Part shown: positions 19,001-64,000 of the stretch, piece by piece
How the letters are laid out: each line of letters starts with the position of its first letter
How positions within the stretch are numbered: the first letter of the stretch is position 1
Assembly (NCBI GenBank): GCA_021018995.1
Contig: CM037591.1
Coordinates: 68,847,901-68,911,900 of the forward strand
Source of the DNA: Chloranthus sessilifolius
Lineage: Eukaryota > Streptophyta > Magnoliopsida > Chloranthales > Chloranthaceae
Length of the DNA: 64,000 nt
Direction: 5' to 3'
Notes under the pieces: generated by a model
Told to the model about the DNA's origin: nothing
What the model saw: the letters and a program-made list of their open reading frames with translations, nothing else
Database searches by the model: none
Program-made: the position numbers and the translations under genes

Positions 19001-22000
19001 CAAGACACATTGGGATGGTTCCTCCACACAGGATTATAAGTATTTGAAAATGTATTATCAGCCCGTTGGAAGGAATTCACAACATTAACGTGCTCTTGCA
19101 TAAAGTCGGGATATAAAGGTGCAGCTGGGCACTCAGGAACCGTATGAGTTATGCTTTGGCAAAGTGCGCAAGCCTCAATTGCATAAGAATTTTTCCATGG
19201 GGCAGCAGACATGAATTGATCCAACCTCCTAGTGAAGGCATCAACCTTGTTAGAGATATCTAGAGAAGCTTCCAATTCATACATACCTCCTCTAGAAGAG
19301 GTGATATTATGTGGAGGGATGTTTGGATCAAATCTTTTCAATGCATCATGTTGCATTGAATTCCCACTTAAGTCCTCAAGCAATTTTCCAGTATTCGTTT
19401 CGACATTGGTAAAAAAGTACCCCCACAAGAAGCACCGACGATATGCCGATTATGCTCACTCAACCCTTCATAGAAACTTTCCACAATTTGCCACTTGGGC
19501 AGATTATGATGTGGGCAATTGTGTAAGAGTTCGTTGAGTCATTCTCAGCTCTCATGAAATTGCTCGGTATTGATTTGGGCAAAGGTCATAATGCCCTTAC
19601 AAATCCCGTTTGTCTTACCAATAGGAAAGTATTTTTTTAAAAATTCTTGTTGCATACCGTCACAACTAGTAATGGAACCCGCTAGCAATGAATTAAGCCA
19701 CTATTTTGCCCTATCCTTAAGGGAGAACGGAAACAATATCAACTTTATGCTATCATCCGTAAGTGTCGTGAGTTTGAATGTAATCCAAACTTCCACGAAA
19801 TGAGCCAAGTATTTATAAGGATCGTCAGTATGAAGCCCATGAAATTGTGAAAGCATCTGGTTGATTTTGGGCTTAATCTCGATTTGTTGATTGCCATCTC
19901 CCGTGAAAGCCGACAATCATATACAAGAGGGTGAAGTATATGCCGTAGGAGTGTAATACTCCTGAAGGGTATTGATCTCTTGCTCAGCCATATTTACAGT
20001 TTCTTCGAAAAGAGGAGAAAGTTTTGGTCGATTCAAACACATAATAACATGATTGCACCTAAGGGAATTTCAAGGTCAAGATACGCTATATTAGGGAATA
20101 ATGATATCCGACTATGCATAAATCACAAACAAAATTTCAAGACAACTACAAATCCAAATCTAAGAGTTGAGCACGTACTTGAAAGTCTTGAAAAGAATCC
20201 CGTGAAGCCGATCGGTGCGTGAAGCCATTCTCCTCAAATCTGATAAAAAAATAAAAATAAAACTCACATTAAAAACATAAATAAAACTAAACTAAACTAC
20301 ACTAAAAGACAAATAAATCAAACAGTCTTTAACCGTAATCTCCGACAGTGGCGCAAAAAACTTGATCCTTAAAATATTAAAACCTTGCAAGCGCACAAGT
20401 GTTGTAATAGTGGTGAGCTATTAAGGGTTGTCAAACCCAAGGGATTACTTGCAAAAACTATCTAACCTATTTATCTTAGATGAAAAGTTTAGTTTTTAAA
20501 ATTAAAAAGGAAACTATGAAGTTGCAATAGAAATAGATTTTCAAAGCAAAAGAGAAAACAATTTAGGGCCTGTCTTCATCTCAGATTCATATTAATTCGC
20601 AATCCTATTTCCATTCTAATTTGAATTTTGAGTAATGACCTTCTCTCCGCTACAAGCTAAAGTAAGGTAAAAGATTAAAACACACTAGCCACTTCCTCAA
20701 TCTATATTAATGATTGTGGTACTAATTGCATCGTTATGACCCTTCATTGGGTCGGGTCACAACACGCGAGCAGTATCTGCAGATAAAATAATGAATAGTA
20801 AAATACAACATCGCACAACATTAAGTGATTCATCACCGTTGGACAGAAGTAATCTCTTAAATTGTGATGTCAATGTTAACTACACATGTTCATTGAATTT
20901 GTAACTCCATCTTGGACAAAAATAAACCTCACTATGAAAACCATGGCTGTTACAGCTTGGATTTCCTAACCGCGAAACCCGAATCGTCGGATCGACGCTA
21001 AGATCGATGCCCGAACGGAACACTTGGAACATCCACATGCAAAGCGGAAATAAAGCGAAAACCATAGCTAAACAGATATAGTCATCATAGACAAAAAATA
21101 AATCTCCAATTCTATAATCTCAAAAGCTCAAAATAACAGTACTAGTCCTATGTAAAAACTCATGGGAAGAAGAACCGAGAAGAACCACCGGTGATGGCCG
21201 ACCATCACTGAAACATGGTTCGCAAAAGAATAGTACACCCACCCAATGTATATCCATAATCCTTACATCGCCAAAAATATATCCAAAACTCATACTTTAA
21301 TCATCCAACAAAGCCAGACCTACCCGCGTTTTGCATAAAGAAAACAATCCTCAGGATGAGGCTCGGAGTCCTCATCTAGAGGCACTGTGACAGCCCAGAT
21401 TTCAGCACCTCGAAACCCGCATCGTCAATGAGCTGGCGCTAAGGCCGAGCCCAACGCATTGCACAGCCTCACATGGCACATCGGAAAAAAAGTAGAACCA
21501 TGCTACCTAACCATCATAGCAAACTAAAGAACTAGAACTATCATTCAAAAGCTCAAAATGACGATTCTAATTTCATACGAATATCTATGGAAAGAGAACA
21601 GACAAAAATCACCGGTAACGACCATTCCTTACTGAAACATGGTTCACCAAAAAAAATTAAATTATAATTATCGTCCAAAATCAGTATTCTTCACATCATC
21701 TCAAAATACTACTCTCTCAACCTAAGGCCAACTATGTTTGGCATCGTACAAAGAAAACATTACTCAGGGGAAAGTTCTTCTAGATCCTCACCAGGTGACA
21801 ACTCATGATCCTCCCTCTCCAAGATCTTTGTTCCAATGCCTTCACCTGAACCTGTGACATTTAGTCGAGGAATGAGCTTCATCCAAGCTTAGTAGGGAAA
21901 AACTCATAGCATTCTTATCTAACATCAACGTATATCTTATGGCATAATGAAACAAAATTTTTCAGAACATATGCACAGTGTGATAATCATGATATGAAAG

Positions 22001-25000
22001 GCACATACAACACTTGTTTGAAATTCATAACACATGCTCCCATTTTATTCTAACATATGAAGAGAAAACTTAAAGTGCTTTACTTAAAGTATTAGAGTGA
22101 GAAACTATAGCTTGAAGCCCCTGATAGAATACCTACCATCGTCGCTCATATGAATCCCTTTTCATATATATCCAAGGTCCCAAAAAAGTGGACACTTGGC
22201 CGAACATAATTATTGTTATACGGTAGGACTCACAAAATATAGCACAAAGGTGTACGGATTGGTCGTCGTACCGGTCGGGTATTCACATAGAACCTTAAAT
22301 CGAGGTGCATGCATGTAGCTTATCGCCGTGTAAAGTGATAATTATAGCTTATATCAAAGGTCGGAACGAAATGTGAAGATCACACATACATACAGAAATC
22401 GGAATGAATCTCGAAAGATTCCATAATACGTGCACAATTCAGAAATATAATGATACACATGCCTTTTCAAATTGAAGTTATAAACGAAATTCACAAGATT
22501 GAATCTAAATTTGCATCATAACATAACACATATGCTAATATAGTAAATGCACACGATATCAAGTGTTCCCTACCTCAAAATCTTAACCCACACGCGGTCA
22601 ATCTGTCGTTTGGGCTTGTCCTTCGTCACACAACGCCAGGTCACCTAAACATATAAAATCCATGGTTCACACATTAGAACTATGTTAAACACACTCTGAC
22701 AACTTCCCTCAAAATCTCACAGTCAAAACTTAATAAAATTCTGAATCTGACAATTTCGATCGATCGAATCCCTATTTTGATCGATCGAAACCCATTTTCG
22801 ATCAATCCAATCTCATTTCTATCGGTCGAACTCTTTAAAGCATATTTCCCTCTTAGTTCGATCGAACGATTCTGCCTTTTCGATCGAACGAACACAAATT
22901 CGATCAATCGAAAATAATTTCGATCGGTCGAATCCTCACAGAGCCAAATGACTACAACATAGTTCGATCGAACGAATCCTAATTTGATTGATTGAATGCA
23001 CGCAATTCGATCAATCAACAATGTTTCGATCAGTTGAATCCCTTAGAAACTAAATAACAATCTGCACAGTTTGATCGAACGAATTTTAATTCGATTGATC
23101 GAAAATAATTTCGATTGGTGAATCCCCACAACAGACTTTTCCAAATCTCTGTTCTATACGTTTCGATCGATCAAGTATAGAATTCGATTGATCGAAACAC
23201 ATTTCTTCCATCTCCAGTCCATTTCGATCGATCAAACTAAATTTCGATCGGTGGAAATGAATAGATTTCATCCGTTCTTAGGTTTTCACATTCGTTCTCT
23301 TCCCTTTCTTATATCAACCCATTTTCTTATGATTTTGTGATTCAAAATTAAATAAAAACCACAAATAACGCAGATTCCAAAGTCTATCCCTAATTTCATG
23401 CCTTGATTTCCTCTAAATCCTCAGTCCTTGCTTCTAGATCGGACAAGGGTTCAGCGAGTGAACAACGACTTGATCGTCGCTCCAAACCCTTACCAGCAAG
23501 CCTCGAGAACAAATTGATCATGTGGTCAATTCACATTCAATGCTCATTTCACCCTCTCTCCTCTTAACTCCAAATCATAAGCAGTAAAAGGGTATTGAAT
23601 GCAAACCATTTAATGGTATTTATTTCCCCTTTAACTAAGCCCTAGGCTTAGGTGTAAGACAGCTACACCAAGGTTGGTGTACTATGTTCACTAACTCATA
23701 ATCTAACCTACCTATACGAAATCCGATCTGTTGGATTTGATCTATAGACATTACATAGACCATCGGCACGATCCTCGATGTACGGATCGTCAGGCATGCA
23801 TACCGAGGCGTACAGTTCCTAGATCAAAACTCAGAGACATTACATTCTCCCCACGTTAGGAATTTTCATCCTCGAAAATTGTTCAAACATGCGATTAGGC
23901 ACCATACATGGCTAAAGAAGAAGGATGGCCTCGTAAGGCACCACACATGGCTAAACAAACCTTTTCGTTACAAAATCTCATCACCCACACGCAATCCACA
24001 CACAATAAATTCTAGTTAATGCCAATCAAACATATGCTTAAACATCAAAGATTAGCATATCAAAATTTAGATCGTTGTGGAAACCATGCCACCATAGTTA
24101 TAACAAAAAGTAAACGTGGCAACCATGCCACCGTAGTTAAAATTTTATACATACCCACCAAAGATTAAATATTAAAATAAAATCTCTTAAGCTAAGAAAA
24201 GTCTTTGTTTGAAACTCGTCACTCGTCCGCCCCTCCCGTCGCTCCAGCAAGATCCGCCGCTCCAGTAGGATCTGCCACATCCTCAGTCTCCTCCTCGGCG
24301 TGATCCCCACCGACCGTCTCGTCAGGCCATAGGTCCTCTGTAGCAGTGCCGGACATAGAAGCACCGAATACCCGTGCACGCATGGCCGCCATCCTCTGAG
24401 CGTAGTTGGTAGGGTACAAGGCATGCAAAACATCCTCCACGAGCTGCTCGTAGTAATTGAGGCGTTGTTTGAGCTGCCGATTACTCTCCTGGATGAGAGC
24501 AGCCAACGCCTCATTGGTGATCGGAGCTGCTTGATGGTCGGGTGATATCGGTATGTCAGCAAACTGATGTACTAGAGGGATGACCTCGGGTTGCTCTTAT
24601 AGAAGCATATTGGGTGTAGGTTGATATGGTTGTGGCGCACCTTGTGCAGGCTCTTCCTGAGGTTGAGGAGGAATAGGTGGTACTTGAAGAGCTGGCTGAA
24701 GGTGTGGTTTCAGCCGATTGAAGGTTTTCCTCAAATGCTTGAAGGTATAGGAGATCTCGATATCGGAGGCTTTAGGCTCCCTCGAAGAAACCTTAGGCAT
24801 CGAAGTTGCGGAAAACTCATCAAACATCGTGGAGATAAAGCTTGTGTAAGAAATATAATCCTCGGGCTTCTCTACCCCTGCCAACAATTTCTTCCTCCCA
24901 TGTTTGATTCCCTCAAAAACTACGGCAGCCGCATCAAACCATTTGCCCTCAAAAGCGGCAAATAACGCCTCCATCAACACCCCTAATCTCTCGGTTTTAT

Positions 25001-28000
25001 GGTGGATCGGGTACAGGTTGCACTTGAAGATCGTATTGAGCATCCACATATAGCTCAATAGATCCGCTTGTTTGATCGCTCTACCAGGTGCAACTCGCCC
25101 TCGAGTCATTCTCTCCGCTACGTAGAGATGGGTCAAATTTGGAGGATTTGGGTGCAACAAATTAATTCCCAGACCGTAGGCTTCAAAACATTCCAAGGCC
25201 TTACAGGCCATCGCATGGGTAAAAACATATGTCTTCCCATCGATCTTTATGCAGATGGTGGTTGTAGGATTAGGACCATCAAACATGTTTTGATAAAATA
25301 AGCGCATGAGGCACGGATAATAGTATGGATGAATGGGTTTAAAAATATTATCCAAACCGACTTTATCCAAATAGTCAAGTGCCCAAGCATCAATGTCGGG
25401 CACATTGGGCGTCTCGAAAAGCGCTGGATCAATGGTGTACTCATAAGCAAAGCCTTTCTCGGCCCACCATTCATTTGGTCGGTCTGGTTGGGGCGCTTGA
25501 GAAGGAGCTGGTTACTCGACAGTGGTTTGCGGTGGTTCGGTGGTGGTTGTGAAGAACCCATGGCGGGTTTGGGTTGCGAAGAACCTGCTACCGTCGTAGG
25601 CTTCTTTGACGTAGGGGTTTTAGAAGCTAATCTAGTTTTTGGAGGCATGGTCAAATCTTAAAATAGGGTTTCTACTTAAATCCCAAAAATCATAGCTCAA
25701 AATAAGAAATTAAGAACTCAAATTTAGGGATTTACCAGTTGGATAAGATTTAGACTTGATCCTTTGGAGAATCCACGCATAATCAATCGGTCGTTTGATC
25801 CCCCAAGACGAAAACCCTCGAAAGCCCTAACGTAACCCCTAATCCTTTCAAAAATTTTGAACTTAAAAATGCAGTTTATATATATACGTGAAATTCGATC
25901 GATCGAATTGATTTCGATCGATCGAAATCCACTTTATAAAGAATACTCCACGATTTCTATTGATCAAAAAAAATTTCGATCGGTTGAAATTGGCTTTGTA
26001 TACAATTGGACCCCACATTTCAATCGGACGAATTTGAATTCGATCGATCGAGATTCAAAATTTGATCGATCGAAATTTTTTTGATTGGTCGAACTTCTCA
26101 GGCTCCCCAGATTTTTTGATCGAACGAAATAAATTTTGTTCGGTCAAAAGCAAAATTCGATTGATCGAAAATGAATTCAATCGAACGAATTTAACAGGTC
26201 TTCACTTAGAAACTGTCCATTTTCTACCAGGACATTTCGATCAGTCGAAATCATATTCGATCGATCGAAATTATTAGAAAACACTTCATTGTTATATTTT
26301 TGAGTTTTCTTTCAAAAATTTGAGCTTTAAACATTAAATTCACCCATCTCATTCATCATTCAAATTATTTACATATACTTGGGTCACAATGGACCATTAC
26401 AAAATTCTTTCCCCTTCTAGGTCACAAAAATAAGGAAGGATATTGGGTGTGAATCTCGGCTTTGCGTTCCCATGTCGCCTCCTCTCTAGAGTGATTCTTC
26501 CATTGAACCAACACCAAGGGAATCCGTTTTGTGCATAGCACTTGTTGGGTTTGGTCTAAAATTTGCATGGGTTCTTCAATGACCGTCAGAACCCTATAGA
26601 CTTCAACTGGTGGCATATTGAGGATATGAGTTGGGTCTCGCACGTACTTTCGTAACATAGAAATGTAAAATACGTTGTGCAGTCGATCCAGCTGTGGGGG
26701 TAATGCAACCCTATATGCAACTTCACCCACTCTCCCTAATACCTCGAACGGTCCAATATAGCGAGGACATCACACCCTTCATTGGAGATATCTTCATGAA
26801 CACGTGATCCCCCACTTGAAAATCCCTGGTCGATCGTTTAATATCTGCATAGCTCTTTTTCCGACTTTGTGCCATCTTGATTCTTTCTTGTATAAGACGA
26901 ACGGTCTCAGCATTTTTCTTATGACTTTTAGTCCTAACACAAATTTGTCGCCTGTTTCCTCCCAGTTGATCGGAGACCTACACCTCCGTCCATACAGTGC
27001 TTCGTACGAAGCCATCCCAATGCTCTGCTGGAAGCTATTGTTATACACAAATTCTATCAATGGAAGATGTTGATCCCACGATCCTTGAAAATTATTCATG
27101 CACGCTCAAAGCATATTTTCAATAATCTGATTGACTCTCTCTGTCTGATCATCAGTCTGAGGATGGAATGCGGAATTGAAGTCCAATCTCGTGCCCATAC
27201 CTTATTGAAATCTTTGTCAGAATATTGATGTGTACAATGGGTCACGATCGGACACAATGCTTGCAGGAATACCGTGCAGTCGGACAATTTCTTTCATATA
27301 CAAATCCGCCAACTTGCTTGCAGTGTATGTTGTGTTATAGGGAAAAAAGTGTGCTGACTTCGTCAGTCGATCCACTATGACTCATATGGCATTGTGGCGT
27401 CTCAACGTTCTCGATAATCCCACAATGAAGTCCATAGAGATAGACTCCCATTTCTATTTTGGTATTGGTAGAGGTTGCAATAGGCCGGCTGTGTTTCTGT
27501 GATCCACCTTTACTTGTTGACACACCAAGCATTTAGAGACATACTCAACAATGTCTTTCTTCAAATCTCTCCACCAATAAGTCTTTCACAAATCCTAATA
27601 CATCTTAGTACCACTAGGATGAATGGCGTACTTAAACTTGTGGGCTTCGTCCAATATGGTCTGCCTCAGCTCAGCATCAACAGGTATGCATAACCTTCCA
27701 CGGAATAGCAATGATCCATCCTCTTTGATGCAAAAAATTTACACTGTCACCGGCAGTCACCATTTGCCTAATCTTTAGGAGCTCTGCGTCTTTCATCTAT
27801 AGTTCATAAATGCGATAAAAAATAGTTGGTCTAATCGTGAGATTTTCTAATAGTACCCCAGTATCCTTGACCTCTATATTCTTATCATATAAAGAGAGGT
27901 CTTTCAGTAGTTTCCATCATCGAAGTCCCGTAATGAGACTAGCCAACTGGGCGGCATTCTTCCTACTCAACGTGTTAGCCACGACATTTGCTTTACCTGG

Positions 28001-31000
28001 GTGATAAGGTATAGTACAGTCGTAATCTTTGAGAAATTCAATCCATCTCCGTTGCCTCATTGTCAATTCTTTCTACGTAAATAAGTACTTAAGACTTTTG
28101 TGATCCGTGAAAATCTCAAAGGTTTCACCATACAGGTAATCTCTCCAAATCTTAAGCACGATAATTACCGCGACTAACTCTAGATCGTGTGTTGGGTAGT
28201 TCTTCTCGTGCTCTTTCAACTGTCTTGACCTATAGGTTATGACTTTGGCATTCTGATTCAAAACACAGCCCAAACCACCATACGATGCATCACTATAAAC
28301 AGCGAAACCCCCACTATCTGATGGAATAACCAACATTGGAGAAGAGGTAAGCCATTTCTTCAGTTTTTAGAAGCTCTCTTCACATTCTCTGGTCCACTCA
28401 AATTTAACGTTCTTCCTTGAAAGTCGGGTGAGCGGTCCTGAAATCTTTGAGAATCCTTCCACAAATTATCGATAATATCCAGCTAGACCGAGGAAACTGT
28501 AAATCTCTGCCAGTCTTGGGTTGTTCCCAATCTAACACTGCCTCAATCTTCGTCTAATCTATAGTCATGTCTGCTTCTAATACTACGTGACCGAGAAAGA
28601 TCACTTGTTCTAACCAAAACTCACACTTGCGGAGTTTGGCATACAACTGATGCTCACGTAGAGTCTGCAAGGCGATGTGCAAATGATGTTCGTGTTCTTC
28701 TCTGGTCTTTGAATAAATAAGAATGTCATTTACGAACACCACTACGCACGTGTCAAGGTGCTGTTTGAAGACCCTATTCATGAGTTCCATAAATGAAGTT
28801 GGTGCATTCGTCAAGCCGAAAGGCATCACTAAGAACTCGTAATGCCCGTATCTAGTTTTGAACATTGTCTTCTTCACATCTTTGGCCTTCACCTTTAATT
28901 GATGGTACTCGAATCTCAAATCGATCTTCGTAAAGAACTTTGCACCTTGCAATTGGTCAAACAGGTCGTCGATCCTTGATAAAGGATATTTGTTCTTGAT
29001 CGTAAGCTTGTTTAACTGATGGTAGTCGATGCAAAGTCTCATCGACCCATCCTTCTTCTTAACAAATAAGACCGGTGCTCCCCTAGGGGATACACTTGGT
29101 CTTATGAAGCCCTTCTCTAAAATTCTTGTAATTGCTCCTTTAATTCTTTCAGTTCGGTTGGAGCCATGAGATAGGGAGCTTTGGAGACTGGTTCCATGCC
29201 TGGAGCTAAGTCTATTGCAAATTCAATCTCCCGGTCAGGTGGCAATCCGGGTAGCTCGTTGAGAAATACGTCCTTGAACTCACTGGCAATCGGAATATCA
29301 GTGATAACATTCCTTGTTTCCTTTTGCTCTTGAAGGAATGCTAAATACCCTTCGCACCGATTCTTCATTCACTCCGCTCGTATCGTGGAGATGATCAGCA
29401 CTACCTTTCCTTTCTCACCAATAAACCGAAAGGACTTTTGTTTTGACAGACGAAAAGTAACTACTTTTCGTAGGCAGTCAACGCTTGCGCGATGAGCGGA
29501 TAGCCAATTCATGCCAAGGAGTACATCAAGTCCTTACATGTTCAACAAAATGAGGTCCACTATAGTCTCTTGATCCTCCGCTTGAACAACGATTGATCGG
29601 CAACAGGTATCTGCGGTTACTGCACTCTCCTTAGGAATGGACACGTTCAAAATAAAATCTAACTTCTCGAGTACTATTTTCAATTTCCCCGCAAATTCTA
29701 GAGTTATTTACAAGTGGGTAGACCCTGGGTCTATCAAAAATCGTGCGACACAATGATCGTCGTTGTTTTCTCAATAGAGTTATAGTGTACTTATATGATT
29801 TAATACATACACTAACGTTCAGACATGCATGTCATTTCTACACAATTATCCAGATGTACCTAAATCTTTTCCTATCAATGCACTTTCTTTATCTCGAAAA
29901 TAAGTAATTATATTTAAGCATAAAAACTAAATTATACCTTGAATTACGTCATTACTTGCACGAGCGTCTTCAGCTGTTACTATAAAAGCGCGGCCTTGGA
30001 CGATAGGTTTTGCAGGTTGTGTAGGCCTCTACGCCGTAGTAGTAGAAACAATACCCTCCTTTCTCATCTTGGGACAGTCTCGTAGCCTGTGGCCTAATTT
30101 CTCACATTTAAAACATCCTCCCGTGTCCCGTCTATAGTCCGATGTTTTATGCGGTTTGCTACAGTGGGCACATTTCACTTGCAGATTTGAAGATGCCGCT
30201 CTTGAAGATCCCTGGGTGACTAATGCCCTAGAGGAGTCTGAGCAGGGCCTTCTCTGCGGAACGGTCTCATTGGAGTAAATGTATTAGACCTCTGATAACT
30301 TGTATAGGCTGGTCTTGAAATTGGAGTAGGTGCTGACAACCTCGGCTTTTTGTTCCCCGAGTCGTAGTACCTCACTCCCCCTGGATTTACCTTGTTCTTC
30401 CAATCTCGCCTCTTACTTATATCCCTCTTTGCCACAATGGCCTTCCCCATCATGTCAGCATACGTTTCAAGATCAAATATTGACACCCTTTCGTGAATAT
30501 TCGGTCTAAGTTCCTCTTCAAATCTACTGGCCTTCATTTCTTCTGTGGCTACTAATTCTGGAGCAAACTTTGATAATCGCACAAACTCATTACCGTACTC
30601 CCTTGTACAAGATTGGTAAAATCCTTTTTCAACTAATTTCTAACTTGTTTAGGAAAATACTCCCTGATAAATGCCCTTACAAACTCCGCCCATGTCCATT
30701 GGTCCTGTTGACCTTCCACTTCTCTCTTTCTTAACATTGACTTCCACTAAGCATCGACGTCGCCTTCAAGTTGGAAGGAGGCCCAACCAATTTTCTCATT
30801 TTCAGGGCTCTGGAGTCTCTCTAATAACTTTTCCATTTGTTTCAACTATTTCTCCACTTCAAGTGGATCAGTCTGTCCCATAAATACTGGAGGTCTCAAT
30901 CTCCTGAAATTCACAAAGGATGATGGCAACAATGCAAGAGGTAGTGGTGGTGGTGGCTGCTGTTGATGACTGACATTATTGGCGGCAAACAACGCCGTCT

Positions 31001-34000
31001 GCTCAGCCAAAAGAGCAGTCTGCTGGGTCTGCTGAGTCATAGCAGCGGCTATGGCCTCCATAGCCCTAGCCATCCTATCAGTCGACTCATCACGATGACC
31101 CCTCTCCGACTCAGGAGGTGGTCTCTGCTCTCCTCAAGAACTTGAAGGAATGTCATCAATGCTCCTCACACTCCTCTGACGACCTACTCTAGGCCAACCT
31201 CTTCCACGCTGATCCACCAGAATCTGTTATAATAAAACAAAAGTCTCATTAATAGACGGTCCCTAGTATCCAACAAAATCTCAAATCTCTAAACGGTCTA
31301 AGACTTGTCAGACGTCTCTAAAGCCGTTACTCTGATACCAACTGTGACAGCCCGGATTTCGACACCCCCCCACCGCGCCGTCAGTGGGCTGGCGCTAAGG
31401 CCGAACCCAACGCATTGCACAGCCTCACATAGCATAGCGAAAATAAAGTAGAACCACGCTAACTAACCATCATATCAAACTAAAGAACTAATACTATCCT
31501 TCAAAAGCTCAAAATGACGGTTCTAATTTCATGTGAATATCTATGGAAAGAGAACCGACAAGAACCACCGGTAAGGACCGTTCCTTACCGAAACATGGTT
31601 CACCAAAAAGAGTTAAATTACAATTATCGTCCAAAATCAATATTCTTCACATCATCTCAAAATACTACTCTCTCAACCTAAGGCCAGCTACTTTTACATC
31701 GCACAAAGTAAACAACACTCAAGGAGAAGTTCTTCTAGATCCTCACCAGGTGACAACTCATGATCCTCCCTCTCCAAGATCTCTGTTCCAATGCCTTCAC
31801 CTGAACCTATGACATTTAGTCTAGGAATGACCTTCATCCAAGCTCAGTAGGAAAAAACTCATAGCTTGCTTATTTAACATCAACATATATCTTATGGCAT
31901 AATGAAACAAAATTTGTCAGAACATATGCACAGTGTGATTATCATGACATGAAAGGCAGATACAACACTTGTTTGAAATTCATAACACATGCTCCCATTT
32001 TATTCCAACATATGAAGAGAAAACTTAAAGTGCTTTACTTAAAGTATTAAAATGAGGAATTATAGCCTCAAGCCCCCGATGGAATACCCACCATCGTCGC
32101 TAATATGAACCCTTTTTCACATATATCCAAGGTCCCCAAAAGGTGGACACTTGGCCGAACATAATTACCGTTATACGGTAGGAGTCACAAACACAATACA
32201 AAGGTGTACGGATTGGCCGTCGTACCAGTCGGGTATTCACATAGAACCTTAAATCGAGGTGCATACATATAGCTTATCGCCGTGTAAAGTGATAATTATA
32301 GCTTATGTCAAAGGTCGGAACAAAATGTGAAGATCACACATACATACATAAATCGGAATGAATCTCGAAACATTCCATAATACATGCACAATTTAGAAAC
32401 ATATTGATACACATGCCTTTTCAAATTGAAGTTATAAACGAAATTTCCAAGAATGAATCCAAATTTACATCATAACATAACACACATGCTAATGTAGTAA
32501 ATGCCCATGATATCAAGTGTTTCCTACCTCAAAATCTTAACCCACACGCGCTCAATCCGCCGTTTGGGCTTGTCCTTCGTCACACAACGTCAGGTCACCT
32601 AAACATATAAAATCCATGGTTCACACATTAGAACTATGCTAAACACACTTTGACAACTTCCCTCAAAATCTCACAGTCAAAACTTAACAAAATTTTAAAT
32701 CTAGCAATTTCGATCGATCAAATCCCTATTTCGATCGATTGAAACCCGTTTTCGATCGGTCGAACTCCTTAAAGCATATTTCCCTCTCAGTTCGTCGAAC
32801 GATTCTGCCTTTTCGATCGAACGAACACAAATTCGATCGATCGAAAATAATTTCAATCGGTCGAATCCTCACAGAGCTAAATGACTACAACACAGTTCGA
32901 TCGAATGAATCTTAATTCGATCGATCGAAAGCACACAATTCGATCGATCGAAAATATTTTGATCGGTCGAATCCCTCAGAAACTAAATCACAATTTGCAC
33001 AGTTCGATCGAATGAATTTTAATTTGATCGATCAAATTTCAGACTCTACCGATCAAAATTAAATTCAATCGATCGAAAATAATTTCGATTGGTCGAATCC
33101 CCACAACAGACTTTTCCAAAATCTCTGTTCTATACGTTTCGATTGATCAAGTGTGGAATTCGATTGATCGAAACACATTTCGTTCGATTGAAATTTATTT
33201 CGATCTAACGATTCCCTCAAACATCAAATTCTTCCTTCTCCAGTCCATTTCAATCGATCGAACTAAATTTCAATTGGTCGAAATGAACTGATTTCATCTG
33301 TTCTTAGGTTTTCACATTTGTTCTCTTCCCATTCTTACATCAACCCATTTTCTTATGATTCTTTGATTCAAAATTAAATAAAAACCATAACTAACGCAAA
33401 TTCCAAAATCTATCCCTAATTTCATACCTTGATTTTCTCTAAATCCTCAGTCCTTGCTTCTAGATCGGACAAGGGTTCACCGAGTGAACAACGGCTTGAT
33501 CGTCGCTCCAAACCCTTAGCAGCATGCCTCGAGAATGGATCGATCACGTGGTCAATTCACATTCAATGCTCGTTTCACCCTCTCTCCTCTTAACTCCAAA
33601 TCATAAGCAGTAAAAGGGTATTGAATGCAAACCATTTAATGGTATTTATTTTCCCTTTAACTATGCCTTAGGCTTAGGTGTAACACAACTACACCAAGGT
33701 TGGTGTACGTGTGTTCACTAACTCATAATCTAACCTACCTATACGAAATCTGATCCGTCGAATTTGATCTATAGACATTACATAGACCATCGGCACGGTC
33801 TTTGACGTACAGATCGTCAGGCACACATACTGAGGTGTACAGTTCCTAGATCAAAACTCAGGGACGTTACAGGCACGTACTCGGAGTCCTCCCTATCTTG
33901 GTCCTCAATACCTGTATCTTCACCTGTACGTGTGATGTATAGTCGAGGAATGAGCTACTGTTGGAGAATTTTCAGGTGCTGATTTATTGTAAAGGAAAAT

Positions 34001-37000
34001 AAAATCAAAGTAAAAAGAGGATGGGATCAACACACTAAAATTATCCTAGACATACAAGATACAGGGTCCATTTGTAGCAAGTTTTAATAAGAGTTTATCT
34101 CATTGGGAGCAGTGATCTAAGCCTAGAGGGTGTATAGTAGACCTCCAGATCCAGCTACAGATCTGACAATTCTAACCTAAATCTAAGAAAGAAAGAAAGT
34201 TTTTTGGGTGTCACTCGATCTAATCTACAAAATAGAAATATAAAATTAAATCTAAAGGGTGGAGGAAGATGGATGGTGAAATAAAATAGAAAATAATAGG
34301 AAATAGACAGCTAGGGCTTGGTTTCTACTGAAGATCAATTGATCCAAAGGCAAAGTATAGAACTGATTTGCTACAATCCCTCATTTGGCTACAAGCTCAT
34401 ATGTAAGGTATAAAAATCTAAACTCAACCAGAGAATTGAAGCAATCCTAAGGCTATGATCTGTCCACTCGAATGGCCACAGATCATCCCAAAGATTTTCC
34501 CAATTCAATGGTCTTGATTGGAACAGGAAAGCTATTGCAGATGTTGTGGGTGCCAGAAAAACTTGTTGTGGATATTTTAGGTGTCGATTTATTGTGTATG
34601 GAAACAACATAAAATCAAAGGAAAATAAAGGATGGATTCAACAACTAAACTTATCCTAAGACTTGCAAGATACAAGGTCTTTTTATAGCAAATTTTAATA
34701 AGTAAGAGTTTGTCCCACAGGGAGTAGTGATCTAAAACCTAAGAGGTGTATAGTGGACCTCTAGATCTGCTACTGGTCTGGCAATTCTAGCCTAAATCTA
34801 AGAAGAAAGAGAGTTCTTCGGGTATCACTAGATCTAATTTATAAAACTAAAATATAAGATTGAAGGAGATGGATGGTAAAATGAAAGATAAAATGGTGAG
34901 AAATAGGCAGCTAGGGCCTGATTTTCTTTTGCAAAACAGATCAAGGTATGTGAATTTTCAGCTTTCCTTCACTTGGCTACAAGCTCAAGTGCAAGGTAGA
35001 AGAATTCAAATTAAACCAAAGGCTTGAACTGATCTTAAGGGTATGGGTTGTCCACTTAAATGGTCACAGATCATCCTATAGACTTTATCCAATCCCAAGG
35101 TTCAGATTGAAATATTAAAACCATTGCGGCTACTATGCTTGTAAGGCTACAAGCACTTACAACCATAGGATCAAATAATCTATATAGATTTGGTGAGAAC
35201 CACTAGAAATCACAAATTATTTGGGGATCTAAACTCCGCTGGGCATTGCTTCAAATAGCTGCAATGCCCTAGCTCTCAAGGTTGCAATCTCTGCATAATT
35301 CCAGATCTCTTCATTGAAAATAGATCTGGAAATAAGAAAAAGAGTCGAATCTGCTACAATCTTTCACTTGGCTACAAGCACAAGTGCAAAGAAGAAGGAT
35401 CCAAGTTCATCTGTACTTCTGGATTGGTCCTAAGGGTATGATTTGTCCACTTGAATGGTCACAAATCATCCTAGAGATTTATTCCAGCAGTGAGGATGAA
35501 GATTAGAACATGAAAATTACTACAAGCACTATGGTTACAAGGCTACAAGTTCAGGCAACCATAGGTGCATCAGATCTGGAAAAATCTAAAGCAATTGAAT
35601 AAAAAAATTACAGATCTAATGGGATTTTAAAAATAGCATTTCATTGACCAAATAATACTTACAATGATCTGCCTCAAGCCTACAGTTTGTGCATGATCCG
35701 GAGCTCTTCACAATGAATTTACAGACTTATTTACAATTAGAAATCAGATCTAGACTGCTATCCAGATCTAATCCAATAGGTTGGATTAGGGAGAGAAGGG
35801 GGAAGAGAAAAAGGAAAAATAAAACCTAAAACTAAATTAAAATGAGCTAAGGAGAACCAAAACTATTCTATGGATTCCTTGCTGAGAAATTACAGCAGCA
35901 AGGAGTTCTATTTATACAAATGCAGTGATCCAAGTTCTTTGGATTGCAGCCAATCAGAGGAGAGATTTCCAATTCACGTTAAGCTTAGTCCCAGTTTTAG
36001 AATTTCAACCAATTAGAGAGAAGAAAGGGATCCAATTCTGTTGTGCTCAGCTGAAACTTCCCGCCAAATATTTGGAAATCAGTTATTGCCCATGTGCAGC
36101 CATCTCTTATGCCTTGGACTTCCCAAAAATGCTCTTGCCAAAAAAAAATAATTTCAGCTGCACACCTCAAATAATTATGCCCAAACTGCTGAGAATGTCC
36201 CACATAAAACTTACACATCCTCTTGGCTGCCCAAAATGCCCCTGCTGCCGTTATTTCGAAACAGCCTAATGTAACTTCTGTTGTTTATTACCAAAGCAGC
36301 CCCACATGGAACCCGCTTTGCTAAACTGCTGAGGTTTTAAAGATGTTTCATCACATGGCTGCAGCTCAATGTAGATTGGGCCTGGGCTGGATTAATTGCA
36401 GAAATATAGGCCAACTGCAACTTCAGTAGTTAGGTAGGGAAGATGAAGTTCGATAGGTTTGAAGGTTGTGTTAGGTAGCAACTTCGAGAGGATGGCTGCA
36501 TGTGTGATTGCTATTCGAGAAGACGGAAGGGAATAGCAGCTGCTGTCTTCAAGTGGTATTGATGGTGAGCTTGGTGGTGTCGACAGGTTTGGAAGCTTGC
36601 TGGTCGACAGGTTGGAGGGTAAGGTTGCTCCTCACAAGTCGACAGGTTTGAGGGGAGGTAGTTTAAGGACTCGACAGGATCACAGGTTGGGAGCTAACAA
36701 GTTGCTGGTCGAGAGGATTGAGGGGAGTTGCTAAAGCTAACCGTCGACAAGTTCAATGCTGAAACCACGTGCATTTCGACAGGATTGGCTTTGGAGCTCG
36801 AGAGGTTGGACTCTGCTGGTCGACATGTTTAAATGTTAAATGGTCGACAGGTGTTGGGGTGCATTAAGTCGAGAGGATGCATGGCTGGAAAGGTGTCGAC
36901 AGGTTTGATGAAGATGGCTTTAAAGCTTTGAATGTCGACATGTTGCTGGGGGTTTTGCAGTGAAGCTATAGAGAGGTTTGGTGAGGCTTTAAAACAGATG

Positions 37001-48731: not shown

Positions 48732-51170
48732 TGTAATATCCCCAATTTTTGTGAACCGTGTAAGTCGAATAGGTATAAGTATCAGTACGACACATGGTAC
48801 TGTTTCAGATTTCAAACAAATCAATTGGATTCACTTTATGCTCATTTGAACTTGTTGGATAAAATGCTAACACCTAACGTAGGTGTATAGGGTTCGCAAG
48901 TGAACCAAACCATTTGTTGAAACACCCATGTGTGTGTGTGTGCTTCACATTGAAGCAAACCAAGGGTATAAGAGAAGTTGCAAGTCATTTCTCCTTGCCT
49001 TTGTTTGAAAATAGAGAGAGGAAGAAGTGAGAGAGAGTTCTTCTCACGTGAGACCTTGGCATCTTGAAATCGAAATCGTCGGCGTTTTTTGTGCAAATTG
49101 TTCCATCACGTTAATTCCCAAGGCAAGTGGTACTAATTGATCGTGTGAGTTTGATTTGTTAAGAGCGTGAGAGCCGTTATATGAGACCCTCTTGATTTTA
49201 AACCCTTTCATAGAGAGTCTCGTCGTCGTCGTACGTGAAATTAGCTTTGGATGTGTGCACTAGAAGGGAATTAAACTTCGCGTACGTCACAAGGCAATCG
49301 CAAGAGGTTGGGTTTCAAACCTATTAATTGAGGGTGGCGAGAGTACCGGTAGTTCCGAAATTTTGTTTGTTGAACGCACAAATTCCATGAGTTAATAAGG
49401 TGAGATCTCGTGGTTTACTTATATTATAGATCGAGCATTTATTGCTCCAAAAGTTAAGCATTTAATATGGATTTAAAAATAGGAAAAAGGGAAAGAGAAA
49501 TAAATTCAAAATTCCAGAAGAATTGTTGAAATCCCGAAAGTCGCTCGCGCGACTTTGGACCTCGCGCAAGATTTGCTTCAGAATAGGCGTGAATTAAAAT
49601 AAGAACAGTGCTCATGCGACTTGGAACTCACGTGTGCGACTGTCTCAGACTGTTTTGATAAGGAGTAAGTGAGAACAGTCGCCCACACGAGGCCGTGCGA
49701 CTGGGGTGAGCCATGGGAAGTTGCTCGTGCGACTTTGGGGCTTGCATGCTTGACTGAGCCAGTTTGGGCTATTTTGGCTATTTTTGGGAAAATTCTCTGA
49801 AACTTCGATGAGTATGTTTCTCCAAGCATTAATTCATGCCCTTTGGATACATTAGAATGTAGGTTATAAGTCGGATGTGTGCGTGAGGATCTTTACCTCG
49901 TTTGAGTGATTAGCATGGTTTCGTGAGCCGTGAGGTTGGAGAAATTCAATAACATCATATTGATGCGATTTGTATAGATAGTGTGATATGATAAGACAAT
50001 TGTGATAAGTTCGATATGCATTTAAATCTTTGACTTATAAATCTTTCAAAATAAGCTTTGTACATGAATTTTAAAATACGTAATTTGAAATGTGAACGTG
50101 AATTGCATATGTGTATGTGATTGTGAATATAAACTTCATGTTTGAGCCTTGAATTCTAAGTTCTGAAACTAGCTATGAAATAAGCACACTACACGGTGAT
50201 AAATTATATGTTAGAATTTGCACAATGATTTAAGAATCATGTGGCACGAATCCTCATCGTGTACCGGTACAGCGGAATATCCGTACATTTACACCGGCCA
50301 ACGGTAAACTTTAGCCTCATGAGTGCCCTCATAGTGTAGGGGCTTGCGCACTCCGAAAATGGTTCATTGAATGACGATAGTTTGAGAATTTTCATTGGTA
50401 TATGTGTGGCTCTGAATGCTATATTTTTCTTGAGAGATTATTTAAGTTATGTTTTAAGTCATGATAAGATATAAAAAAACATGTAAAATCTAAAAACGAT
50501 CAAGAGAATAGAAACAAAGAAACAAATTCTGAACGTGTGATTAAATTCTATTTTATTTGATTCAAGCATCTTGAAAATTCAGTTTTATGTGAAATTTATT
50601 CCGAAATTAGCCATGAAATCTATGCTTTGAAATATGATATGAATGTTGTTGATATTCTCCTGTTGAGCTTAGACTGTTAGCTCACCTCTCGACAATACAT
50701 CACAGGCACAAGTGTAGATACGACAATTGAGGATTCCGGGTGTGAGGAAGACCCTGATTACATCCCTAAAGAAGATTTAGATCTTTCACCAGACGAGTAC
50801 TTCCCTTAGGGGACTTCTGATTATTTTGAAATCTTGTGACTAGGGCTTGGTACGTTCAACCATTATTTTATCATAGAACTTTGGATTTGAATTCATGTAG
50901 TATTTAGATGTTTTGTGAACTACTATTTAGGTGATGGTCGGCCATCACCAGTGGTTCATTTTGGTTTTGTCATACTTATGAGCTGTATAAGGATAGAACC
51001 ATTATTTTATCTCTATTCATGTGTATATAGAAGTGGAGGTTTCTTTTGCTATCTATATATGTCTGCTTTGAATTCTGCTATGTGTGTGGATGTGCCAAGT
51101 ATTCCGTTTCAGGGATTGTTATTATCATGATCCGATGTGAATTCGTGGTTAGGAAATCCTCCGGTTATGT
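48732..51170 (+). mobile_element. 5' LTR of the + strand chromovirus (LTR 2)
   Basis: Starts TGTAATATCCCC inside the Copia gag; five bases before are ACATC. About 2.44 kb, like the LTRs of the complete copy, and shares GGTGATGGTCGGCCATCACC (50933) and the GTACGG/CGTACCGG block (50262). The end is placed near 51170 by alignment; terminal CA and primer site have decayed. U3 array uses the motif GTCGCTCGTGCGACTT (49535-49760), not TCGATCGA. Confidence 0.78.
49535..49760 (+). repeat. GCTCGTGCGAC motif array in U3 of LTR 2
   Basis: About eight units: GTCGCTCGCGCGACTT, GCTCATGCGACTT, CTCACGTGTGCGACTG, CAGTCGCCCACACGAGG, GTTGCTCGTGCGACTT and weaker ones. The core AGTCGC..GCGACT is self-complementary. 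Confidence 0.85.
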
Positions 51171-57410: not shown

Positions 57411-57429
57411 GGTTAGGCTTGAAATGCTA

Positions 57430-58350: not shown

Positions 58351-58762
58351 AGTTTCAAAATGGGGATTAAGTATTCATAAAGATTTCACCCACGAAGGGT
58401 GTAATGCAATTTGCATAATGTGAGAAGTTGAGTCCATGTTATGTGGGACCATTTGAGGTTTTTGGATGAGATGGAGAAGTTGCATATCGGGTTGCTCTAC
58501 CGCTGCAACTATCAAGCATGCATAACGTATTTCACGTGGTGATGCTAAGGAAATACGTGAAGGATCCAACTCATGTCCTAGACTATCAACCGATTGAAAT
58601 TCAAGAAGACTTGACCATTAGAGAAGAACCGGTGCAGATTGTAGATCGAAAGGACCAAGTGTTGCATACCAAATGTATTCCGTTGGTACTTGTATGGTGG
58701 CAAAACCATTCGCCGAAAGAAGCTACTTTGGAATGCGAGTAGGACATAAGCGACGCATATCC
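58351..58762 (+). pseudogene. Chromodomain end of the + strand chromovirus
   Basis: HNVFHVVMLRKYVKDPTHVL from about 58518, then EEPVQIVDRKDQVLHTKCIP and LVLVWWQNHSPKEATLECE, ending TAG at 58740. Same Tekay/Del-type tail as the complete copy. Confidence 0.85.
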
Positions 58763-59441
58763 GTAACTCTTCGAATGGCTAGTAGATCATTTTTATGTAC
58801 ACTTTATTTGTCAAATGTGATTGCTATCAAATGGTTAGCATTGTGCTAAGGGTCCCAAGCGCTAGTCACGAATCATCAAGTATTGCCGGAAGTTGACTTA
58901 AGGAAATCCACATTTTAGTTTAATGTAATGGGTATGCGTGTATAGACCGTGTACTCAAAATTTCAATGTAAATGGAAGAAAAAAATAATTTAATGTGATA
59001 AAAGGAACCCAAACAGAAAACAACAAAAATCATAAAAATATACTGAACTCACGCACGCAAATTTAAAGTTGCTCGTGCGACCTCTTCAGATGGCAATGCG
59101 AGAAAAAAGGGGTAACACAGTCACTCGTGCGACTGTTCGGGCGCTAGTTTTGAAATGAAAGTCACTCGTGTGACTTTTGAAGTCGCTCGTGCGACTATTG
59201 GGGTATATGAGGCATGCGGATCAGTTTCTTCATAATTTTTTACGTGAAATTTTTTTGAAACCCAAGGGACTCTCCCCATTACGTGCAACCTACCCTTTTT
59301 ACTTCATATTCGCTATGGATTAGCCTGGGATTCGCTGGCACCTTGATCGAAAGGGATATTCTCTGGAATTTCTTTGCACAAAAAGGGTAAGAATTGCCGT
59401 TTCAAATTCAAATCTCTTTGTTTTCTTTTCAAATAGTTAAA
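58763..59441 (+). promoter_or_regulatory. Spacer with GCTCGTGCGAC array before the extra ORF
   Basis: No gene to about 59040. From 59045 to 59215 about six units (AGTTGCTCGTGCGACCT, AGTCACTCGTGCGACTG, AGTCACTCGTGTGACTT, AGTCGCTCGTGCGACTA), the same motif as in U3 of this element. A weak TATA-like GGTATATGAG follows at 59203, then a leader with a possible small intron (AAAGG/GTAAGAATT near 59386; acceptor CAAATAG near 59436) directly before ATG 59442. Confidence 0.65.
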
Positions 59442-60698
59442 ATGGGACAACAAAAAATGTTCGCATCCAAATCTTCATTGTCCAAACGCCCGAACAACCC
59501 CCAGAGTGCTGGGATTCAAAGAAATTTGAAGTAGAATGGTCAATTGACCAAAGTTTGTTTGAGGGCCAAGAGCCACCCAATGGACTCTTGTGTATTTGAC
59601 CACCGCTGACATGAATTCTCTCCTCGAGCCATTTCATAGTCAATATTACCCTCGGTTGGTGCGCCTCTTTTGTTAGAAATTGAAATTGAGTAGGATGAAA
59701 CCAAATTTGTGACTGAAATCGATGGTCATAAATTCGAATTCGACCTAAATGACATTTCTATCACGATGGTATGCCCATTAAGGTGTGCTGATGAAGGGGC
59801 GTTGCAACCCCCAAACCCAAAAAAAGTACCATTTCAAGATATAATCGTCGAGATGATGAAAGGGCAAACCGGATCGGGATTGTCGGTTAGAAGGGCCCAA
59901 TTGCCCAATTACATGTGGCCACTTGACATCATTTTCTGGAAGAATCTGTTTCACATGGGACACAAGTGGGAGAGGAGAGACACATTTCTCGAGAGCTTAT
60001 TTGCTGCCTATCAGGGGAAGTGGTTCTCCACCCCGACTATGGTGAGTGAGGAAATGGTATATGCCCGCAACAATGCAAGGCAGAGTGCTCACAAGGTGAC
60101 GCTTAAGAGATTACTAAATGATCGGTAGATCACTAGGATGATCAAGCAATATGTGGAAGATGAACCAGAGGGGGGATACCAAATTTTGCAGGATGAGCCT
60201 CGATTCACTGGCAACACCCAACGGTATAAATTTGAGGATTTAAAAATCAGTTTGGACAGTTTAAATGCGAGGGTGAAGCACCGCCGAGCTGAAGAAATTG
60301 CGCATCAAGCGCAATAGCAACAACAGCAGCAGCAACCCCAATAACAACCACACCATGAGCCTAATTAAGCAGCTCAACATCGGATATCACCACAATCCCA
60401 GGTTCCAGTCCAGCCACCGATTTCCCCATATGGTGGACTAGACTTCGTGACAAAACTTTTTAGAAGAATGGACTTGCAAGACCTGATGCTTAGGAGGATT
60501 AAGCAACACAACGAGCAGACCAAGCACCAGCTTTACTACCACGAGGCCCTGCTAAGTGACATGATACGATACATGTGCCCATCCGATTACTTGGAGCGCA
60601 TGGTAGCGGCACGGGCATGCATGCCAGAAACTTCTAGTTCTGGAGCAGGTGGAGCCGGTGATGATGAGGCTGAGCAGCAAGGTGGTGAGGAGGACTAG
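59442..60698 (+). pseudogene. Extra ORF of the + strand chromovirus, broken
   Basis: Homologue of 24219-25648 of the complete copy. Start ATG 59442 after a possible leader intron; the first 25 codons are in one frame, then the equivalent of the WSIDQSLFEGQEPPN block in another, EPFHSQYYPRLVRLFC near 59621, TEIDGHKFEFDLNDISITMV (59710), YMWPLDIIFWKNLFHMGHKW and LFAAYQGKWFSTPTMV near 59990-60040. After TAG 60126 the frame runs through a Gln-rich stretch with stops at Gln-like positions to DLQDLMLRRIKQHNEQTKHQ and an acidic Gly/Ser tail, ending TAG 60696. Family as in the other copy; function unknown. Confidence 0.72.
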
Positions 60699-63620: not shown

Positions 63621-64000
63621 CACCCCCAAACCTAATCTTTGCTAGTCCCTTAGCAAAGCTACACTAAAAACTACAGAAATTAACTGCCACTTTCGTAGGG
63701 AGTACGGATATATTTAGCATATGTACAAAGCCTTTTAAACCCCTAGGTGATCCCTAGTGGAGGAGTGAAGTCTCCTGAGGGTTTTCAGTGAAGATACCCA
63801 CAAACTTCTCAATAAAATAGTTAGCAGAAGTGCAAGATTCAAGTCAGCTGTCAAGAAAACGAGCATCAGTTCACCCCTGAATCAGTAAAAATATAAGAAA
63901 TTTAAATGCATTGTCTGCACAGATGTTTAAGCATAAAAAACTTCCCATGATAGCACAACATTTCCAATCAGTTCACAACAGGGAAACTACACATGTGTGT
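63621..64000 (-). other. Internal 3' region of the LTR D element
   Basis: Starts with the polypurine tract and the conserved blocks TTTGCTAGTCCCTTAGCAAA and CTAGGTGATCCCTAGTGGAG, closely matching 4086-4460. The element continues beyond the window. Confidence 0.75.

What the first reader, a model, noticed from the sequence alone, without database searches (positions are those of the whole stretch)
21386..33871. Retrotransposon whose U3 motif array is repeated upstream of its own accessory ORF
In the complete chromovirus the TCGATCGA-type palindromic array occurs in both LTR U3 regions (22750-23270, 32700-33300) and a third time internally (25893-26280), between the chromodomain stop and an extra ORF. 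A TATA box (25875-25884) and an ATG (25648) follow the internal array. This looks like a second transcription unit marked with the same cis signal as the LTR promoter. Known parallel: VANC proteins of Arabidopsis VANDAL transposons bind short motif arrays of their own element and remove silencing. Inference: the accessory ORF may encode a factor recognising the array in the LTR and in its own promoter. I know of no Ty3 chromovirus described this way.
Basis: partly seen in the sequence, partly recalled or inferred. Interest (0 to 1): 0.88.

Follow-up and report, generated by a model that had tools for sequence, protein, structure and literature searches.

The report
Retrotransposon tags two promoters alike
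A plant jumping gene carries the same short DNA tag, many times over, in its two ends and beside the start of an extra gene, and a related element in the same window does this with a different tag, so the extra gene may make a protein that finds and controls its own element.

Summary
The minus-strand Ty3 element (21386-33871) carries TTCGATCGATCGAA arrays in both LTRs and, independently, between its integrase/chromodomain stop and an extra ORF, followed 7 bp on by a TATA box and then an ATG. In the window's own 2.17-Gb plant genome, 44 of 52 distinct copies read (the window's included) keep both arrays. Motif columns are better conserved than spacers between subfamilies, the reverse of post-insertion decay. 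Open ORF copies show dN/dS 0.06-0.19 (12 of 18 pairs measurable).

A second such element in this window has a homologous ORF (31-42% identity in pieces) and a different motif, AGTCGC-TCGY-GCGACT, again before the ORF and upstream of gag; 8 genome relatives broadly agree, with almost no cross-hits. Copia-type loci with a PF20167 ORF use CACGGACGTCCGTG in both places; an Athila-like locus has GTCGATTAATCGAC before its ORF (LTR not reached).

The layout is not wholly new: Bousios et al. 2010 reported palindromic repeats in Sirevirus LTRs and upstream of their ENV gene, calling them Sirevirus-specific. New here: Ty3 occurrence, motif-ORF covariation, a testable role. Best reading: the ORF encodes a sequence-specific regulator of its own element, functionally like foamy-virus Tas or VANC. 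Binding and anti-silencing are untested.

The parts
31343..33871 (-). 5' LTR of element A (sense = minus strand)
   Evidence: self-alignment; ends TG..CA read; target-site duplication GGCAC at 21381-21385 / 33872-33876
21386..23844 (-). 3' LTR of element A
32709..33282 (-). motif A array in 5' LTR (21 sites within 3 mismatches)
22755..23256 (-). motif A array in 3' LTR (20 sites)
25894..26269 (-). internal motif A array (13 sites) between integrase/chromodomain stop and extra ORF
25875..25886 (-). TATA box of the proposed internal promoter, 7 bp after the last motif
   Evidence: a TATA-like string follows a motif in 47 of 48 copies with the array
25646..25648 (-). ATG of the extra ORF
   Evidence: an ATG at this place was found in 20 of 20 loci by the pattern, and in 19 of 30 by the stricter pattern
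24219..25648 (-). extra ORF (3' aORF), broken here: N-terminal piece in another frame, main frame 25511-24597 (304 aa), stop, tail 24596-24219; weak PF20167 (Transposase_32) match
26422..26769 (-). integrase C-terminus with a chromodomain-like end
   Evidence: Pfam SH3_Tf2-1 7.8e-18 (over cut-off), Chromo 2e-4 (21.7 bits, cut-off 25.1)
28073..29222 (-). RNase H and reverse transcriptase frames
   Evidence: Pfam RVT_1 3.5e-31, RT_RNaseH 2.5e-25
30220..31133 (-). gag-region frames
   Evidence: position; similar frames in element B; weak Ty3_capsid (E 0.072, below cut-off)
31324..31340 (-). primer-binding site TGGTATCAGAG... (initiator-Met type; assignment recalled)
23845..23854 (-). polypurine tract GTGGGGAGAA
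39067..39346 (-). motif A array (9 sites) in an older, related LTR into which element A seems nested
   Evidence: nesting read by eye
49539..49734 (+). element B: 3 motif B sites upstream of gag, in the presumed 5' LTR (borders not mapped)
58434..58772 (+). element B: integrase/chromodomain region (61% identical to element A's)
59067..59196 (+). element B: internal motif B array, 4 sites
59204..59209 (+). element B: TATATG, 7 bp after the last motif
59489..60698 (+). element B: degraded homologous aORF; pieces in three frames at 59489-60095, 31-42% identical to element A's, and a further open frame to 60698

Best explanation
A self-recognition module. SHOWN by sequence: families of Ty3 elements carry a 3' extra ORF under protein-level selection, with its own promoter-like region (array, about 7 bp, TATA, leader, ATG), and the same family-specific motif array is kept in the LTR; motif and ORF family change together. 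INFERRED: the ORF is transcribed separately. Its product, with a basic N-terminus and probably a dimer because the sites are palindromes mostly on a ~20-bp pitch, binds the array in its own promoter (positive feedback) and in the LTRs. Binding turns on, or keeps free of CG methylation, the gag-pol transcription unit. It would work like foamy-virus Tas with its internal promoter, with VANC-style motif-protein co-evolution. Transactivation and anti-silencing are not separated by the data.
For: 44 of 52 distinct family A copies keep both arrays. A TATA-like string lies 4-11 bp after a motif in 47 of 48 copies with the internal array, at 7 bp in 34. Internal (687 sites) and LTR (643 sites) motifs share minor variants at positions 5 and 6 (the consensus itself is partly set by how sites were picked). 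Motif more conserved than spacer in 11 of 11 far internal arrays (86.9 vs 74.7%), 26 of 32 closer ones and 9 of 9 far LTRs tested, while the window element's own two LTRs show the reverse after insertion (89.0 vs 94.5%). With motifs masked, the window's internal and LTR arrays show no homology beyond 100 shuffles. Covariation: family A 1352 motif A and 2 motif B sites in 212 kb; family B 0 motif A and 51 motif B sites in 30.7 kb. Copia-type loci with a PF20167 ORF: 34 motif D sites against 0.1 expected, in both places in 2 of 4 (L070, L074), directly before the LTR TATA in L074. aORF dN/dS 0.06-0.19 in 12 of 18 pairs of copies picked for open frames; synonymous sites saturated in the other 6.
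Against: No binding, expression or methylation data. The aORF fold is unresolved (two-row model, pLDDT 47), and no solved-structure or protein-database relative was found. In family A the LTR array is not directly followed by a conserved TATA. Four ENV-less Sireviruses keep motifs in the LTR, and unrelated Sireviruses share near-identical motifs (PMC2829016 section 9), which also fits host factors. Aligners can favour repeated motifs over spacers. 8 of 52 family A copies lack one array by my thresholds; 2 of 8 family B copies lack one, L064 has a single LTR site and L068 a single internal one. L073 has no LTR site within 3 mismatches and L069 only one. The LTR leg of the Athila-like case was not reached. 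Copies were chosen, not sampled at random.
Confidence: 0.6

Rival explanations
1. The arrays are binding sites for host (for example stress-related) transcription factors that drive both promoters; the extra ORF is an env-like or other accessory protein that does not touch the motif.
For: This was the suggestion for Sireviruses (PMC2829016 sections 9 and 19): motif look-ups in PLACE mainly recovered stress-factor sites. Motifs in LTRs of ENV-less elements. Near-identical motifs in unrelated Sireviruses.
Against: Homologous ORFs in two Ty3 families of one genome go with two different motifs and almost no cross-hits. Hydropathy gives no clear transmembrane helix in 6 of 7 predicted proteins (maximum 0.83-1.53 over 19 residues; L073 reaches 2.38 in a C-terminal stretch that differs from its sister copy), which argues against an envelope.
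Confidence: 0.25
2. The aORF protein acts on RNA, particles or integration (for example as a silencing suppressor), and the shared arrays are there only to express it together with the LTR.
For: Maize and sorghum Tekay 5'aORF proteins were likened to a dsRNA-binding-motif protein (PMC11728184 section 9). Nothing here shows DNA binding.
Against: It does not explain why motif identity tracks aORF family; those 5'aORFs lie in another position and are not reported as PF20167 kin in the parts I read.
Confidence: 0.08
3. The arrays are passive tandem repeats (slippage, gene conversion or spread from LTR to interior), a CpG-rich target for silencing rather than a signal.
For: Tandem arrays between pol and 3' LTR are common in Retand elements and of unknown function (PMC11963269). 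One Athila-like locus has a 92-bp array-bearing duplication at 95.7%.
Against: No spacer homology between internal and LTR arrays of the window copy; near-fixed array-TATA spacing; motif better conserved than spacer although motif columns decay faster after insertion.
Confidence: 0.07

Closest known systems
[quoted passage not shown] 2010, PMC2829016)
   Same: Palindromes, mostly CpG-bearing and differing between elements, in the LTR and upstream of a gene between pol and 3' LTR; linker copies in the 9 elements with ENV and none in the 4 without. My copia-type family D (CACGGACGTCCGTG) resembles their Usier motif GTCGGACGTCCGAC and is probably of this kind.
   Different: They call the RM Sirevirus-specific and point to host factors. 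Here it occurs in Ty3 elements with a homologous aORF, and motif-aORF covariation within one genome is shown.
Foamy virus Tas with LTR and internal promoter (PMC4929722, abstract; PMC8670036, search listing)
   Same: A viral gene whose product binds and activates both an internal promoter and the LTR.
   Different: A retrovirus; no homology tested; no large shared palindrome arrays known to me (recalled).
VANC anti-silencing proteins of VANDAL elements (PMC5735166, PMC10398659, passages)
   Same: Element-encoded protein, short motifs in tandem arrays in the element's non-coding parts, related families with different motifs.
   Different: DNA transposons; motif YAGTATTAY for VANC21; binding and demethylation proven there, not here; homology not tested.
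Retand elements with TRP28 antisense aORFs and tandem arrays; maize Grande gene23 (PMC11963269, PMC7264820)
   Same: aORF between pol and 3' LTR, often with tandem arrays (Retand); gene23 has its own promoter; a regulatory role is suggested.
   Different: Antisense ORF; Retand's carries another domain (PF04195) and Retand is not a chromovirus; sharing of the array with the LTR is not reported in the parts I read.
Transposase_32 (PF20167) aORFs, e.g. sunflower Athila 14 ORF(+) (PMC11728184)
   Same: Sense 3' aORF with PF20167 similarity and a nuclear localisation signal.
   Different: Families A and B match PF20167 only below the curated cut-off.

Membership tests
Ty3 chromovirus | Ty3-type RT/RNase H and integrase C-terminus | tested here: met
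   RVT_1 3.5e-31, RT_RNaseH 2.5e-25, SH3_Tf2-1 7.8e-18, all over cut-off
Ty3 chromovirus | chromodomain at the integrase C-terminus | tested here: inconclusive
   Pfam Chromo at the right place but below the 25.1-bit cut-off in the window copy (21.7) and in L050 (22.3)
Ty3 chromovirus | two LTRs, target-site duplication, PBS, PPT | tested here: met
Transposase_32 (PF20167) | score over the curated cut-off of 45 bits | tested here: not met
   families A/B: window 21.9 bits; 13 of 14 members match at E<=0.1, best 8.4e-5 = 23 bits; the window B piece gave no match. Distant kin at most. L071 passes (53.3 bits)
Sirevirus-type RM system | palindromic motif in LTR and upstream of a 3' ORF | tested here: met
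Sirevirus-type RM system | Ty1/copia Sirevirus backbone | tested here: not met
   families A and B are Ty3; for group D, L069 has a copia-type RT (RVT_2 4.4e-61) but Sirevirus membership was not tested
VANC-like anti-silencing system | related families carry different motifs in their own non-coding arrays | tested here: met
VANC-like anti-silencing system | encoded protein binds the motif and removes methylation | not testable with these tools
   needs DAP-seq or EMSA and bisulfite data
VANC-like anti-silencing system | homology to VANC | not tested
   no VANC sequence was compared
Foamy-virus-like internal promoter and transactivator | accessory gene after pol with its own promoter-like region | tested here: met
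   array-TATA-ATG layout, (sequence only)
Foamy-virus-like internal promoter and transactivator | product activates internal promoter and LTR | not testable with these tools
   reporter assays needed
env-like gene | transmembrane helix | tested here: not met
   family A/B proteins: maximum 19-residue hydropathy 0.83-1.24 in 4 of 4 (usual threshold 1.6 recalled). Outside them: C 1.53, D 1.24 and 2.38. Hydropathy only

The most novel reading that the evidence does not exclude
The sense '3' aORFs' or 'env-like' genes of plant LTR retrotransposons related to PF20167, in Ty3 chromoviruses, Athila-like and copia-type elements alike, are not envelopes. They are a portable family of sequence-specific DNA-binding self-regulators, each co-evolving with its own CpG-palindrome array in the LTR and in its own promoter: a retroelement counterpart of VANC and Tas.
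Probability: 0.5. Interest if true: 0.92.

Novelty: new variant of a known kind. Interest (0 to 1): 0.8.

Why it matters
The role of extra genes in plant LTR retrotransposons is open ('env-like', 'aORF', function unknown: PMC7264820, passages), and a 2026 paper (PMC12844716, passages) raises the question whether such proteins modulate the element's epigenetic state. Motif-ORF covariation in homologous families turns this into a simple binding test with built-in specificity controls (A protein on A and B motifs, and the reverse). If right, it would explain family-specific palindrome arrays between pol and 3' LTR and add a sequence-specific self-activation or anti-silencing system to highly repeated plant DNA.

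Tried and rejected
Protein database searches with the window frame and with the 14-member profile A2 gave nothing at E<=0.01; the solved-structure search gave nothing at E<=1. A two-sequence fold model had pLDDT 47 and pTM 0.36, so no fold search was run on it. Literature search for TCGATCGATCGA: 0 occurrences in the ten papers listed. Duplicate rows: 8 of 60 family A loci were the same places as others and were dropped before the count of 52, which includes the window's own copy. The first DNA alignment mixed strands and was not used. Copy choice: family A = the 20 best of 43 DNA matches, the 30 best of 130 protein matches, and 10 lower-identity places that I chose; family B = 8 places that I chose (151 matches counted); PF20167 group = 5 places (L069, L070, L071, L073, L074) that I chose from 150, L072 being the continuation of L071. 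In one search copies with fewer than 5 internal motifs were left out, L046-L048 fell in neither the closer nor the far group, and the LTR comparison used 9 of the 10 lower-identity loci (L053, without an LTR array, left out). The dN/dS pairs are of copies picked for open frames. The motif-blind 10-mer ranking was run on stretches that I chose around the arrays and skipped 10-mers with fewer than 3 G/C. A simple copying of the LTR array into the interior was considered and rejected. Other off-diagonal counts: 62 motif C sites in family A (motifs A and C are alike at 3 mismatches), 6 motif D sites in family A (3.2 expected), 5 motif A sites in group D, which all lie in L069 4729-5101, outside the copia element.
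Full report
WHAT IS THERE. The element runs on the minus strand from 33871 to 21386. Its LTRs align at 90.0 and 91.6% identity in two blocks; GGCAC flanks it on both sides, the primer-binding site is TGGTATCAGAG, and a purine tract precedes the 3' LTR. The coding remains are gag-region frames, RT, RNase H, and an integrase C-terminus (SH3_Tf2-1) with a chromodomain-like end that scores just below Pfam's cut-off, here and in copy L050; I keep the word chromovirus with that reserve. It is an old, decayed copy. After the integrase stop comes an array of TTCGATCGATCGAA-like sites (25894-26269), then TATATATATAAA, then an ATG and an ORF that is broken in this copy. The same motif fills part of the first half of both LTRs. 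The window holds 65 sites within 3 mismatches against about 2 expected. A fourth array (39067-39346) lies in an older related LTR; the text on both sides suggests, by eye, that the element is nested in it.

THE FAMILY. The window's genome is held (2.17 Gb, 32 contigs). The extra ORF is highly repeated: 43 DNA matches and 130 protein matches were listed, with 42031 first-look candidates for the latter. I read 60 loci, 52 of them distinct, the window's own included. Of the 52, 48 have 5 or more internal motifs, 48 have 4 or more in the LTR part held, and 44 have both; the 8 exceptions are listed, and many loci end inside the LTR. Of 48 copies with the internal array, 47 have a TATA-like string 4-11 bp after a motif, 34 of them at exactly 7 bp. 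Of 638 internal spacings between sites, 61% are 19-23 bp. Some copies have open frames of about 490-510 aa. In 12 of 18 pairs of open copies dN/dS could be measured and is 0.06-0.19 (three of these with dS of about 2 or more); in 6, synonymous sites were saturated. So the protein was under selection in the active lineages.

IS THE ARRAY A SIGNAL? Three results say so. (1) Position weights of 687 internal and 643 LTR sites agree, including the same minor variants at positions 5 and 6; sites were picked by likeness to the motif, so the agreement of the variants counts more than that of the consensus. (2) Compared with the window's internal array, 11 of 11 far copies have higher identity in motif than in spacer columns (86.9 vs 74.7%), 26 of 32 closer copies do (88.0 vs 81.6%), and so do 9 of 9 far LTRs tested; the two LTRs of the window element, identical when it inserted, show the opposite (motif 89.0, spacer 94.5%), as expected for decaying CpGs. 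An aligner can favour repeats, so this is supportive, not proof. (3) With motifs masked, the window's internal and LTR arrays are no more alike than 100 shuffles (24 against mean 19.8, maximum 30), so one is not a recent copy of the other.

COVARIATION. A second such element lies in the window on the plus strand (gag region from 51387, RT from 53245, integrase/chromodomain region 58434-58772) with a degraded homologous ORF from 59489, 31-42% identical in pieces; the family B copies are 28-33% identical to family A copy L049. Upstream of that ORF are four AGTCGCTCGTGCGACT-like sites (59067-59196), then TATATG 7 bp on; three sites lie at 49539-49734, upstream of its gag. The pattern AGTCGCNCGNGYGACT has 19 matches on both strands of the window, 1.78 expected, none of 100 shuffles as many. 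Eight relatives that I chose hold motif B in the internal place in 7 of 8 (L064 has other sequence there; L068 has one site) and in the LTR part in 7 of 8 (L061 has none, L064 one); none holds motif A. Of 8 rows shown, 6 have a TATA-like string about 7 bp after the last motif, and in 2 (L066, L068) that string is diverged. Totals: family A 1352 A and 2 B sites in 212 kb (18 and 4 expected); family B 0 A and 51 B sites in 30.7 kb (1.4 and 0.2 expected). A motif-blind ranking of 10-mers shared by the two places, in stretches that I chose, put a piece of the family motif first in 11 of 11 loci tried. Both motifs place three CpGs 4 bp apart (TT-CG-AT-CG-AT-CG-AA; AGT-CG-CT-CG-YG-CG-ACT), as if one recognition mode had diverged; this is my reading.

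OTHER LINEAGES. A PF20167 search of the genome scored 150 places, all over the cut-off. Of five that I read, L069 has a copia-type RT (RVT_2 4.4e-61) upstream; L070 and L073 show copia RNase H ends by recalled motifs (Pfam gave no match for the L070 piece); L074 is grouped with them by its ORF and LTR. Their motif is CACGGACGTCCGTG: before the ORF and in the LTR in L070 (9 and 4 sites) and L074 (8 and 4); 8 before the ORF and none within 3 mismatches in the LTR in L073, where broken copies can be seen by eye; L069 has lost the upstream part and has one LTR site. In L074 the last internal motif is followed by TTTTTATAAACC and the last LTR motif by CATATAAATT. L071 has an Athila-like integrase by a recalled motif (Pfam gave no match for that frame), 11 GTCGATTAATCGAC sites before its PF20167 ORF (53.3 bits), 4 before a second ORF and 4 further on; its LTR was not reached, because another element seems to be inserted. 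Families A and B match PF20167 below the cut-off (13 of 14 members at E<=0.1; the window B piece not at all), so common descent of all four ORF groups is likely but not proven.

MECHANISM. I infer a separately transcribed regulator that recognises the array in its own promoter and in the LTR. The 6 A, B and D proteins looked at begin with a net positive stretch (e.g. MAPKRK...SKRPK), the one C protein does not; the sites are palindromes mostly on a ~20-bp pitch; 6 of 7 proteins lack a convincing transmembrane helix by hydropathy. Whether the regulator activates or protects from methylation is open. The main rival is host factors, as proposed for Sireviruses.

WHAT IS KNOWN. Bousios et al. 2010 (PMC2829016; passages and sections 9, 19, 20 read) found palindromic repeated motifs in the LTRs of 13 Sireviruses and, in the 9 with an ENV gene, also in the linker, 77 of 79 upstream of ENV. 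They called the motif Sirevirus-specific, suggested stress-related factors, and saw support for an internal promoter without identifying one. VANC (PMC5735166 and PMC10398659, passages) gives the co-evolution precedent, bovine foamy virus Tas (PMC4929722, abstract and outline) the two-promoter precedent, maize Grande gene23 (PMC7264820, passages) the own-promoter precedent, and Retand (PMC11963269, abstract, section 11 part 1 and section 12) arrays plus aORFs of unknown function. PMC11728184 (passages and section 9) links PF20167 to a sunflower Athila aORF. Of PMC3485330 I saw the abstract and outline, of PMC12859917 and PMC12844716 passages. Searches showed no chromovirus with this layout and no proposal, in the listings and passages seen, that the 3' aORF product reads the LTR motif; most subscription papers are not covered.

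VERDICT. Observation confirmed; inference partly supported and now sharper. Novelty lies in the Ty3 occurrence, the motif-ORF covariation, and the reading that joins these cases.

Noticed in passing
L071:4343-5201 and L072:1-1600: A chromovirus-like LTR (TGTAACAACCC..., judged by eye) inserted in the Athila-like element carries TTTGATCGATCAAA sites (18 in L072, 4 in L071), a likely further motif family; a similar array of 18 sites is in L070 (sense 4672-5170). Its aORF was not fetched.
   Followed up: partly
L069 sense 4020-5130: A chromodomain end (44% identical, E 2e-7) is followed several hundred bp later by AATCGATCRATCGATT-like sites, perhaps yet another internal array.
   Followed up: no
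L071:3122-3205, 4176-4254: In the Athila-like element the motif also precedes a second ORF (3264-3812, no Pfam match), and a 92-bp array piece is duplicated at 95.7% identity.
   Followed up: partly
window 33959-38125: Insertion (by eye) splitting the older LTR, with a ~550-bp piece repeated at 75% identity (33959-34504 / 34564-35093) and many CGACAGGTT-like repeats at 36600-37300.
   Followed up: no
window 61290-64000: Other repeat sequence seems, by eye, to interrupt element B near its 3' LTR, so its 3' LTR array cannot be seen here; 63519-64000 is 79% identical to 3983-4470.
   Followed up: no
window 57419-57904: Two 249-bp tandem copies, 89% matching, between the RNase H and integrase parts of element B.
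   Followed up: no
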